The translations under genes were made by a program, and so were the position numbers. This document shows, piece after piece, positions 10,808 through 59,530 of a stretch of DNA of 64,000 bases. Numbering within the stretch: the first letter of the stretch is position 1; each line of letters opens with the position of its first letter. This DNA is from Paraflavisolibacter caeni (lineage in GTDB: Bacteria > Bacteroidota > Bacteroidia > Chitinophagales > Chitinophagaceae). The notes under the pieces were generated by a model. The model saw only the letters and a program-made list of their open reading frames with translations. It was not told the origin of the DNA and ran no database searches. The stretch is from the NCBI RefSeq assembly GCF_025628885.1, contig NZ_JAOTIF010000031.1, forward strand, positions 1 to 64,000, written 5' to 3'.

Positions 10808-10870
10808 TAAAAGTATGCGGATGCATATTTTTTTAATAGATCATTTGTTGATATAAATGAAACAAATGTT
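10808..10870 (-). promoter_or_regulatory. Promoter with operator site B, for the GH43-CBM6 gene
   Basis: The near-palindrome at 10841-10870 has arms CATTTGTT and AACAAATG separated by 11 bp. Exactly 26 bp to its left is TACTTTTA on the minus strand (10808-10815), one mismatch from TAnnTTTG. The predicted start of transcription is near 10800, about 26 bases ahead of the GH43 start at 10774. The same architecture occurs at sites C, D and E. Confidence 0.75.
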
Positions 10871-10921
10871 CAAAAGACATACTATATGTAAGGATCAAGA
10901 GTTGCTTTATGTTGTATCTTT

Positions 10922-12838
10922 CTATTGAAACAACTGCTGTGCAAAATTGTAAAGGTTATTTCTCCACACAGGCCAGGTATGCCCCCCAGGATATTCGCTG
11001 TAGGTATACCTTACATTATATTCATTGAATTTTGAAAGCATGATCTTACAGTTATTGTATGCGATATCTTCCTTGCCTCCCATGGCGATCCAAAGTAATT
11101 TCAAATTGTTGTTGATCATGGTTGCATTAGTCTTCATAAAAACATACTGCGGATCCGAAAGCGCAGGTTGATTAGCGAACCAGCCAGAACTAAATACGCC
11201 GAGATAAGAAAAAAGTTGTGTGTTTTTAATTCCTGCATACATGGTTTGTATTCCACCCATGGACAAACCGGCCAATGCTCTGTTTTTTGAATCGGTTTCT
11301 GTTCTATAGTTCTTCTCAACAAAAGGAATCACTGATTGCTTTATTTCGTTCTCAAATGATCTTAAAGCATTTTCACTGAATGCCGCCATACCCATATTGC
11401 CATCCAGCATCACCACAAGCATGGGTTTTGCTCTCTTTTCAGCAATGAGGTTATCCAGAATAAGATCTGTTCGCCCCTGTGTAGCCCATCCTCTTTCGTC
11501 TTCACCACCTCCATGCAACAGGTAAAGAACGGGGTATTTTTCATTTGGATTGATATCATAACCAGGCGGAGTATAGATACAAAAGCGACGCCATGAATTA
11601 GTAACTGTGGAGTAATACCTCTTTATTCTTACATCCCCATGAGGGACATCTTTTTCGGCATAATAGCTTCCGCCAGCAAAAGGTATTTCTATACCACTTG
11701 CCATACGGCCCATACCATAAAAAGTTTCACTTGCCGGATCTGCAACGGCTACGCCATCAATCAATAGTGAATAATAATGAAAGCCCTCTCCTATGGAGTC
11801 TGTAGTTACCACCCAATATCCACCCGTGTCTCTCGTCATATCATATTTCTTAACCAGATCAATTTGCACCTTTTGTGCTTCCGGAGCTTTGATGCGGAAA
11901 ACTACACGGTTATCGGGTAAAATCTGCGGGTACTTTGCAGATCGTATATTGGTAGATGCAGGCGTTCCTAATACCGTATATTTTGAAAATGAAGAAATAT
12001 CTACAGGTTTGAACAGTAATTGTGAAAACATGTACAAACCATTTTTCCAAACTTTAAAATCATGCACTCCAGGTTCTATGTAATAGATATGTGGAACATT
12101 TTTTTGGTAGAGAAAATCGTGTGTCCGCCTGCTGAATGTGATCAGGCCATCATTGTCACCGCAAGAGATCCAAAGCAGCTTTAATTTCCTTTTGGCTTCT
12201 TCCGGATCTGGAACCAATTCTTCTGGTCTTTTGGTATTAGGAGCTGATGAAAATCCACCCACCCAGGCAAATTTGTCCAGGTTACCCAATCCGAAGTTTA
12301 GAGATTGTCCTCCTCCCATGGAAAGCCCTGCTATGGCACGATGTTGCTGGTCCTTAAGTACTGGGTATTTCTTTTCAATAAAAGGAATCAAATCATTGAG
12401 CAGGTCTTTTTCAAAAGTAGCAAAAGCCTGAACTTTATCCGGAGCCATAATATTCCCTGTTGCACGGTCATTTTTCATGGCCCTGCCATTCGGCATGACC
12501 ACAATCATGGGCACAACCTTGTTGTCAGCATACAAGTTATCCAGGATCACTTGTGGCTGTCCCCCGTTCAACCATTCTTTTTCATCGCCACCAATGCCAT
12601 GTAGCAGGTACAAAACCGGGTATTTTTTCTTCTTGGAAAAACCGGGTGGTGTATAGATTAAGGCCTTTCGGGTGGTATCTACAGTATTGGATGTATAGCT
12701 AATGGTATCAATCTTTCCATGTGGGATACCTGCACGTTCCACATCAAAACCTTGCGGAGCCTGTTTCACTATTTCCTGCGCATAGCCATAGAAGTTAAAC
12801 ATTGCAAGGAGGGATAAAGCGAAAACTAGTTTTTTCAT
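10922..12838 (-). CDS. Double CE1 esterase with central CBM48-like domain (CE1-CBM48-CE1)
   Basis: A 638-residue secreted protein with two complete esterase domains, predicted to cut feruloyl or acetyl esters from arabinoxylan. After a signal peptide (FYGYAQE), the first alpha/beta-hydrolase domain covers roughly residues 25-285. It has [14 protein letters not shown], nucleophile S173 in GLSMGG and a catalytic His in [16 protein letters not shown]48-like beta-sandwich follows at about 310-385. The second esterase domain (about 400-638) repeats the plan with [15 protein letters not shown]526 in GLSMGG and a His in [12 protein letters not shown]. Both sites look intact, and the halves are clearly divergent. 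It is the last gene of the susC/susD operon, 139 bases after the DUF1735 gene, with a large inverted repeat in the gap. Substrate assignment (feruloyl versus acetyl) is inference. Confidence 0.88.
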
Positions 12839-12873
12839 TTCTTGTATCGTTTAATAATCACTGATAAAAAGCG

Positions 12874-12960
12874 AATAGACATGACACATTTCAGGAATAT
12901 TCAGATCAGAGAAACATTTATGCCCTTTCATCTGAATGATTGGGTAGTGTCATGTCTATT
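12874..12960. repeat. Long inverted repeat between the DUF1735 and esterase genes
   Basis: A perfect 14-bp inverted repeat (12874-12887 with 12947-12960) encloses a second 8-bp pair (12899-12906 with 12930-12937). Together they can form a branched or two-stage hairpin that fills most of the 139-base gap. No T-run follows on the minus strand, so it is not a classic terminator. A role in mRNA processing, or in lowering read-through from the transport genes into the esterase gene, is possible. Confidence 0.7.
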
Positions 12961-59040: not shown

Positions 59041-59105
59041 GAATTGTTTTAGAATTAAAAGAATGTGTGTTATCAAATTGAAAGTAAACGGATAAGAATC
59101 TATTA

Positions 59106-59372
59106 CTATTTAAACAGCCTTGGAGCGAAATCATTGAGGGCTCTGCGCCATGTTAACCATTCGTGTGCAGTGCCTTGCGATTCATGGTAAACTAAATTTT
59201 TGATACCATGATTTTTAAGCTTTTCATAGGTTTGCTTTGCTCTCTGACCTTCTTCTGTACCAATACTCATAGGAAGCGGTTCTTCCTGTTGGTTACGCAT
59301 AACACCTACAAACTGTGCTGATGCAATGCCATAAAACATAACTGCAATCAGAACGATAGAAACTTTTTTCAT
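59106..59372 (-). pseudogene. CE1 esterase remnant: signal peptide joined to C-terminus
   Basis: An 88-residue frame from the ATG at 59372. Residues 1-19 form a normal signal peptide (MKKVSIVLIAVMFYGIASAQ). The remainder from about residue 38 matches the end of a CE1 feruloyl or acetyl esterase: GTEEGQRAKQTYEKLKNHGIK and the His-containing GTAHEWLTWRRALNDFAP. The nucleophile-bearing middle (GxSxG) is gone, so it cannot be an active esterase. The frame is open throughout, so a short exported peptide may still be made. As the first gene after operator site E, it could act mainly as a leader for GH51. Confidence 0.75.
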
Positions 59373-59467
59373 GATTAAGGATCGACAATGGTTAAAAAGG
59401 AACAAAGGTTTCTTCCAAGCTTTTTCAAGATGAAGCCGAGGTGCCTTTTGATAGAATTTGGTATTTT

Positions 59468-59530
59468 CAAATCTAGCTTCACTGAATTGGGAATACAGGC
59501 TCATTTGTTGAAAATCATGGAACAAATGTT
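59468..59530 (-). promoter_or_regulatory. Promoter with operator site E, for the GH51-to-haem-protein operon
   Basis: The palindrome at 59501-59530 has perfect arms CATTTGTT and AACAAATG. TAGATTTG at 59468-59475 on the minus strand matches TAnnTTTG and lies exactly 26 bp to its left. Transcription would start near 59460, about 88 bases ahead of the CE1 remnant. The site lies in the gap between this operon and the rightward regulator gene, 215 bases from the regulator start. Confidence 0.8.

What the first reader, a model, noticed from the sequence alone, without database searches (positions are those of the whole stretch)
10808..59530. Four leftward operons share a 30-bp palindrome at a fixed 26 bp from the -7 element
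Seen directly: near-identical copies at 10841-10870, 24240-24269, 37593-37622 and 59501-59530, all with arms CATTTGTT and AACAAATG 11 bp apart, same orientation. In each, a minus-strand TAnnTTTG-type element (three exact, one with one mismatch) ends exactly 26 bp to the left. Each copy heads one leftward transcription unit, and none was seen upstream of other genes except the orphan at 7304-7333. Identical spacing at four places is hard to explain by chance and points to an activator bound just upstream of the -33 region. Inference: the AraC-type domain of the regulator at 59745-63935 binds it, which would define one regulon for all the hemicellulose genes here.
Basis: partly seen in the sequence, partly recalled or inferred. 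Interest (0 to 1): 0.85.

Follow-up and report, generated by a model that had tools for sequence, protein, structure and literature searches.

The report
Xylan regulon operator, a direct repeat
Four gene batteries for digesting plant hemicellulose in a soil-type bacterium share one DNA switch, most likely the docking site of a membrane sugar sensor next door, and the same switch at the same distance from the promoter recurs beside the same sensor in many related species.

Summary
Four copies sit at the stated places, each 25 bases upstream of a minus-strand TAnnTTTG element (three exact, one with one mismatch). They are the only exact arm pairs in the 7.01-Mb genome (about 0.005 expected). The interpretation needs one correction. 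In relatives the conserved block is 37 bp, AACATTTGTncCATnnnTTTCAACAAATGAgCcATcC: two 16-bp half-sites in the SAME orientation, 21 bp apart. It looks palindromic because the half-site core CAwwTG is self-complementary. Direct repeats averaging 21 bp are what Ravcheev et al. 2013 predicted for Bacteroides hybrid two-component systems (HTCS). The proposed regulator is well supported by co-occurrence. A site-plus-promoter pattern hit 35 of 394 family genomes (reversed control: 1), and 30 of the 35 carry an HTCS 54-100% identical to the window's. In 26 of those 30 a site lies under 1.5 kb from an HTCS gene and divergent from it. Best reading: the phosphorylated HTCS binds head-to-tail, its proximal half over the -33 region, which lacks TTTG, and activates sigma-ABfr-type promoters. 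This is a new member of a known kind, with a strict promoter register. Binding, induction and start sites are untested.

The parts
10834..10870 (-). Operator B, 37 bp: two direct half-sites (10855-10870 and 10834-10849); heads GH43-CBM6 (8696-10774) and LacI-type gene (7556-8596)
   Evidence: gene names
10808..10815 (-). -7 element of unit B, TACTTTTA (one mismatch to TAnnTTTG)
24233..24269 (-). Operator C; heads SusC/SusD, SusC-like/SusD, BT_3987-like and CE1-type esterase genes (10922-23951)
   Evidence: genes. 15811-18858 gave no Pfam hit at 1e-8 and is called SusC-like from its place between two SusD genes; 10922-12838 matches Pfam Esterase, and 'CE1-type' is my label
24207..24214 (-). -7 element of unit C, TAGTTTTG
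37586..37622 (-). Operator D; heads GH43, GH8, GH43, GH97, SASA-type esterase, GH10, GH9-like, GH43 and CBM6 pieces (24573-37447)
   Evidence: genes
37560..37567 (-). -7 element of unit D, TAGTTTTG
59494..59530 (-). Operator E, 215 bases from the HTCS gene and divergent from it; heads an esterase remnant, GH51, GH3 remnant, GH43-CBM6, GH27, GH43, GH31, GH97, GH31, GH95, ThuA and DUF7133 genes (37685-59372)
   Evidence: genes (GH51 is my label for the Pfam arabinofuranosidase domains)
59468..59475 (-). -7 element of unit E, TAGATTTG
7297..7333 (-). Orphan, decayed copy: right half-site degraded, no -7 element in register, between the 3' ends of a decayed AraC-type gene and the LacI-type gene
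59745..63935 (+). HTCS regulator: propeller sensor (Reg_prop), Y_Y_Y, HisKA, HATPase_c, Response_reg, AraC-type HTH_18; SHIP motif at residue 1208

Best explanation
The repeated element is the operator of the neighbouring hybrid two-component system, and the four copies define its hemicellulose regulon. The operator is a 37-bp direct repeat of an AraC-type half-site, roughly RACAwwTGwnCYAT, with a 21-bp period (two helical turns). When a hemicellulose oligosaccharide binds the periplasmic propeller, the receiver domain is phosphorylated and frees the HTH domain (inferred from published HTCS work). Two HTCS subunits then bind head-to-tail on one face of the DNA. The promoter-proximal subunit covers the -33 region, where no TTTG is found, so it stands in for the missing -33 element and contacts sigma-ABfr-type RNA polymerase at the TAnnTTTG element 18 bases further on. 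This explains why the register hardly varies. Shown: the sequence, the register, the direct-repeat symmetry, and co-occurrence with the HTCS in many genomes. Inferred: binding, phosphorylation, activation, inducer, start sites.
For: Only four exact arm pairs in the genome, all here. The register is 25 bases in 4 of 4. In 20 regions that I chose from hits of a pattern without the promoter, 14 of 21 sites with at most 3 mismatches have exact TAnnTTTG at offset 26 (12) or 27 (2). In 29 other loci of the same search (30 rows) only two rows do: L039, the same place as L045, and L029. Operator-plus-promoter pattern: 35 of 394 family genomes including the own one, reversed control 1; 30 of those 35 hold an HTCS 54-100% identical to the window's. 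On the 195 genomes where both were searched: 15 of 18 with an HTCS of 53% or more have the site, against 4 of 177 without, p = 3e-16 (the 53% line was drawn after seeing the list). 26 of 30 genomes have a site under 1.5 kb from an HTCS gene and divergent (in G022 this is the 49% copy, not the 57% one). Named genomes: 17 of 24 HTCS relatives at 53% identity or more have it upstream at up to 6 mismatches of 31 (20 of 24 at up to 8); controls 0 and 0 (0 and 1); relatives at 47% or less: 0 of 35 (1 of 35 at up to 8). Using only AACA-lag-AACA-offset-TAnnTTTG in 26 named loci, the cell lag 21/offset 34 holds 7 and 21/35 holds 2, with a mean per cell of 0.026. Direct repeat beats inverted repeat in 29 of 37 sites, 7 ties, 1 reverse (this count includes a few positions used in selection, the octamer test does not). 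TTTG in positions 30-42: 0 of 25, TTG 1 of 25.
Against: No expression, start-site or binding data exist for this organism in what I searched. In 7 of 21 sites no exact -7 element is in register. Beyond this HTCS group the register was not recovered: among 11 further own-genome region groups only one (contig C21) gave a convincing pair, with lag 22, and in 53 distant HTCS loci lag 21 was only modestly enriched with scattered offsets. Sites within one genus are not independent, and the G and named sets overlap in some genomes. Many genes beside HTCS orthologues differ between genera (GH10 in 8 of 17), so the substrate is an inference from GH10, GH43, GH8, GH51 and esterases.
Confidence: 0.85

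Rival explanations
1. The element is a true palindrome bound by a symmetric dimer, for example the LacI-type regulator encoded at 7556-8596 in unit B.
For: The arms are exact reverse complements in all four window copies. A LacI-type relative (34-48% identical) occurs in 13 of 64 regions scanned (a few are the same genome twice). In L055, L057 and L060 (one genus) a 42% relative follows a site within about 0.2 kb, in L059 after about 0.9 kb, and in L250 a 38% relative follows within 0.25 kb.
Against: Positions 30-37 are conserved, but their palindromic mirror -5..0 is not. Inverted matching is no better than shuffles. None of 17 named loci with a site holds a LacI relative at 45% or more; 2 hold a full-length one at about 42%. 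The central CG usual in LacI operators is absent (recalled).
Confidence: 0.06
2. A stand-alone AraC-type regulator binds the direct repeat; the decayed gene at about 6000-7290 (+) is its remnant.
For: AraC-type proteins bind such direct repeats (general knowledge), and the remnant lies next to the orphan site.
Against: The gene has several in-frame stops. Its intact C-terminal piece has a relative at 45% or more in only 1 of 17 named loci with a site, while pattern-first hits track the HTCS in 30 of 35 genomes.
Confidence: 0.04
3. The repeat is not an operator but a mobile or structural repeat (transcript hairpin, terminator, REP-like element).
For: Copies B and D lie just after a gene end (51 and 62 bases, from the coordinates).
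Against: It lies upstream of the promoter element in fixed register, the arms are A+T-rich without a T tract, the DNA around the copies differs, and conservation is confined to 37 bp plus the -7 element over several genera.
Confidence: 0.02

Closest known systems
AraC-type hybrid two-component systems of Bacteroides (e.g. BT4663, BT4124) and their predicted operators (Ravcheev et al. 2013, PMC3878776; passages read)
   Same: Same protein architecture; predicted operators are direct repeats with an average 21-bp distance, read there as a dimer on one side of the DNA; regulator next to its susC/susD locus; SHIP motif of the receiver domain (PMC11253607, passages read).
   Different: Different family (Chitinophagaceae) and a half-site whose core is self-complementary, so the repeat also reads as a palindrome; the half-site letters of the Bacteroides motifs were not compared. 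A fixed distance to the -7 element was not in the passages I read.
Sigma-ABfr promoters of Bacteroidetes (TAnnTTTG at -7, TTTG at about -33; PMC7366714, passages read)
   Same: -7 element TAnnTTTG, exact in three of four window promoters.
   Different: No TTTG in the -33 region; the proximal half-site occupies it.
E. coli AraC at araI1-I2 (recalled, no call)
   Same: Two 17-bp half-sites as direct repeats 21 bp apart, the proximal one touching the -35 region, activating head-to-tail.
   Different: One-component soluble regulator; different half-site.

Membership tests
AraC-type HTCS regulator of Bacteroidota PULs | Periplasmic propeller and Y_Y_Y, HisKA, HATPase, receiver and AraC-type HTH in one chain | tested here: met
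   (Pfam, these above their cut-offs)
AraC-type HTCS regulator of Bacteroidota PULs | S/CHIP motif in the receiver domain | tested here: met
   SHIP at residue 1208; motif from PMC11253607
AraC-type HTCS regulator of Bacteroidota PULs | Gene next to susC/susD and glycoside hydrolase genes | tested here: met
HTCS operator as described for Bacteroides | Direct repeat, about 21 bp between half-sites, upstream of PUL operons | tested here: met
   description
HTCS operator as described for Bacteroides | Binding by the cognate HTCS | not testable with these tools
   only co-occurrence:
Sigma-ABfr promoter | -7 element TAnnTTTG | tested here: met
   3 exact, 1 with one mismatch, same offset
Sigma-ABfr promoter | -33 element TTTG | tested here: not met
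   0 of 25 sites have TTTG in positions 30-42; read as activator dependence
Palindromic (dyad) operator | Conservation and pairing symmetric about the centre | tested here: not met

The most novel reading that the evidence does not exclude
The strict layout (two AraC-type half-sites 21-22 bp apart, second half-site box 34-35 bp before TAnnTTTG, no -33 element) is a general promoter grammar of HTCS-controlled polysaccharide loci in Bacteroidota, so that the operators of many uncharacterised HTCSs could be read from sequence alone. Hints: a second locus of this genome (contig C21, two HTCS-like genes, one of them 42% identical over its length) has two promoters with AACA boxes at lag 22 and 35 bp before TAGTTTTG/A. 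In 53 distant HTCS loci, lag 21 is the most frequent repeat lag upstream of TAnnTTTG (11 of 218 elements, not all independent; mean of the other 28 lags 3.1, highest 7), but without a fixed offset.
Probability: 0.35. Interest if true: 0.65.

Novelty: new member of a known kind. Interest (0 to 1): 0.45.

Why it matters
HTCSs run much of plant and host glycan digestion in Bacteroidota, and I found no operator described for them in this family. Here one HTCS group gets a 37-bp operator, a fixed promoter register and a regulon, with site and HTCS together in 13 of the 17 genera hit. It can be tested with one protein and four short DNAs. It also warns that a self-complementary half-site makes a direct repeat look like a palindrome.

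Tried and rejected
Palindrome reading: rejected on positions outside the search pattern. LacI-type and stand-alone AraC-type regulators as binders: do not track the site as the HTCS does. First relatives search (58 genomes) used a spacer one base too long and also missed the own sites; discarded and redone on another draw. That looser pattern hit 57 of 195 genomes, and by my count of its rows the reversed control hit 20, so many of its hits are chance. General register for all HTCSs: looked for without motif knowledge in 12 region groups of the own genome (two of them, C23 and C17, are not around clear HTCSs) and in 53 distant HTCS loci; only contig C21 and a weak lag-21 excess came out. In one search the count of window pairs at 23 of 37 or more (8) is close to the shifted controls (3 to 6.5); only the top six pairs, all among the four sites, stand out. 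A structure prediction was not run: it would not decide the DNA symmetry.

Limits: one search tested 59 of the 80 loci; 21 were left out (L179 and L182 start inside the HTCS gene, most others have short upstream flanks, a few were simply not entered). Of the hits I read 20 regions of my choice and 29 single loci; the rest were covered only by the composite pattern. In one search the named-locus sites were chosen with the -7 element in the score, so the -7 conservation there is partly built in; that does not touch the half-site test, and (part A) did not select on the -7 element. The 85% redundancy filter dropped 13 of 50 sites. Literature: searches showed no paper on this motif in Chitinophagaceae or on a fixed HTCS-operator to -7 distance; papers were seen as search listings, and passages of PMC3878776, PMC11253607, PMC7366714, PMC12125979 and PMC10766802; supplements were not read, and most subscription papers are not held.

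Full report
What was checked. They are the only exact arm pairs in the genome of 7,014,184 bases, where 0.005 would be expected from base composition. At up to three mismatches the arms alone are mostly chance (147 places, reversed control 102). The orphan at 7304-7333 has two mismatches. On the minus strand the element TAnnTTTG follows each copy after 25 bases, exact in C, D and E and with one mismatch in B. No other offset between 0 and 80 has two copies with at most one mismatch, or any exact element. The probability of this agreement by chance is about 1e-10 over the 81 offsets. A blind comparison of 749 promoter-like elements of the window, in fixed register, ranks the six pairs of these four sites first, with 27 to 33 of 37 identical bases.

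What lies around. The window is a hemicellulose locus. Unit B has GH43-CBM6 and a LacI-type gene. Unit C has two SusC/SusD-type pairs, a BT_3987-like protein and an esterase. Unit D has GH43, GH8, GH97, an SASA-type esterase, GH10 and a GH9-like protein. Unit E has GH51, GH27, GH43, GH31, GH97, GH95 and others. The regulator at 59745-63935 starts 215 bases from the outer end of operator E and points away from it. It is a complete HTCS with propeller, Y_Y_Y, kinase, receiver and AraC-type HTH, and it carries the SHIP motif that PMC11253607 ties to repression of DNA binding before phosphorylation (passages).

Relatives. A pattern for the element, without the promoter, was run over 195 genomes of the family; it hit 57 of them at up to three mismatches, against 20 for the reversed control by my count of the rows. 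In 20 regions that I chose from its hits, 14 of 21 sites with at most three mismatches have an exact TAnnTTTG at offset 26 (12 sites) or 27 (2 sites); 7 do not. Eight of these 20 regions carry a full-length HTCS 57-71% identical to the window's, several with GH10, GH43, CE1 or SusC/SusD relatives beside it. In 29 other loci of that search, only L029 and L039 (the same place as L045) have the element in register. Named records of HTCS relatives include Chitinophaga, Niastella, Paraflavitalea, Longitalea and Flavisolibacter. One of them, 'Chitinophagaceae bacterium PMP191F', has a contig of the same length as G068:C2, which is in the window's family. Contig G008:C10, of the window's own genus, has the same length as contig NZ_RBCI01000018.1 of Flavisolibacter nicotianae X7X, so the window is probably from a relative of it in Chitinophagaceae (inference).

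Operator plus promoter. The combined pattern hits 35 of 394 family genomes, the own one included, from 17 of 101 genera; the reversed control hits one. Of the 35, 30 hold an HTCS of 54-100% identity, in 13 genera. The other five are G199 (49%), G031 (48%), G161 (41%), G391 (35%) and G131 (none at the cut-off). On the 195 genomes searched for both, 15 of 18 with an HTCS of at least 53% have the site, against 4 of 177 others (p = 3e-16; the 53% line was drawn after seeing the list). The three misses are G087, G110 and G188. In 26 of the 30 genomes a site lies under 1.5 kb from an HTCS gene and divergent from it; in G022 that gene is its 49% copy. In a draw of 295 genomes of the class, only the own genome is hit. 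In the named set, 17 of 24 HTCS relatives at 53% identity or more carry the site upstream at up to 6 mismatches of 31 (20 of 24 at up to 8), against 0 and 0 (0 and 1) in two controls and 0 of 35 (1 of 35) for more distant HTCSs. In four same-genus relatives (G005, G008, G012, G014) sites precede relatives of the window's SusC, GH95, GH43 and CE1-type genes, among others.

Direct repeat, not palindrome. Aligned sites are conserved from position 1 to 37 with sharp edges. Taking 1-16 and 22-37 as half-sites, AACA stands at 1-4 and 22-25, TG at 7-8 and 28-29, and C-C-A-T at 11-14 and 32-35. Chitinophaga polysaccharea (L173) has GACAATTGTGCTAT and AACAAATGAGCTAT, 11 of 14 identical. Positions 30-37 were not in any search pattern. 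They match the left half directly in 2.97 of 8 places (shuffles 1.99, none of 2000 as high), but match the palindromic mirror in only 1.57 of 8 (97% of shuffles as high) (37 sites). Using nothing but AACA, lag, AACA, offset and TAnnTTTG on 26 named loci, lag 21 with offset 34 holds 7 cases and 21 with 35 holds 2, against a mean of 0.026 per cell. The half-site core CAwwTG can be its own reverse complement, and a CATTTG in one half is the reverse complement of CAAATG in the other, which is why the direct repeat also reads as an inverted repeat.

Mechanism. AraC-type HTH domains have two reading helices (PMC11253607). A dimer on half-sites 21 bp apart places both subunits on one face, as Ravcheev et al. 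proposed for Bacteroides HTCSs. The second half-site ends 18 bases before the -7 element and thus lies over the -33 region. There TTTG is absent from all 25 sites looked at. I therefore infer a promoter that is weak alone and needs the HTCS in a strict register, like E. coli AraC at araI (recalled). Signal, phosphorylation, binding and activation are inferred, not shown.

How far it reaches. In this genome a second locus (contig C21, two HTCS-like genes, one of them 42% identical) has two promoters with the same boxes at lag 22 and 35 bases before TAGTTTTG and TAGTTTTA. Ten other own-genome region groups gave nothing convincing. In 53 distant HTCS loci lag 21 is enriched (11 of 218 elements, mean of other lags 3.1) but the offset varies and the cases are not all independent. 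A phylum-wide rule is therefore open.

Verdict. The regulator assignment is well supported by co-occurrence, and the palindrome is reinterpreted as a direct repeat. It is a new member of a known kind, an HTCS operator, whose fixed register was not described in what I saw of the papers found.

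Noticed in passing
59106-59372 (-): First open frame behind operator E looks like a signal peptide joined to the tail of a CE1-type esterase (recognised by eye), an internally shortened remnant before the GH51 gene.
   Followed up: partly
24573-25927 (-): A GH43-CBM6 gene is split over two overlapping frames (25163-25927 and 24573-25217): a frameshift or a sequencing error.
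   Followed up: partly
56029-56604 (-): Only the C-terminal part of a GH3 enzyme is present.
   Followed up: partly
about 6000-7290 (+): Decayed stand-alone AraC-type regulator gene with several in-frame stops, ending beside the orphan operator; a mutarotase-like frame lies at 5864-6217 (-) (both recognised by eye, no family search run).
   Followed up: partly
L095 (contig C21 60000-79900): 14626 (-) and 6895 (-): Second own-genome locus with two HTCS-like genes and two promoters in the same layout but with lag 22 and 35 bases to the -7 element.
   Followed up: partly
L058 9949 and 9990 (-): Two operator-like copies in tandem, 41 bases apart, upstream of one promoter; possibly four half-sites.
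   Followed up: no
L055, L057, L060 (and L059, L250): In one genus (g9) sites directly precede a LacI-type gene about 42% identical to the window's; the window's unit B also holds a LacI-type gene, a possible feedback loop.
   Followed up: no
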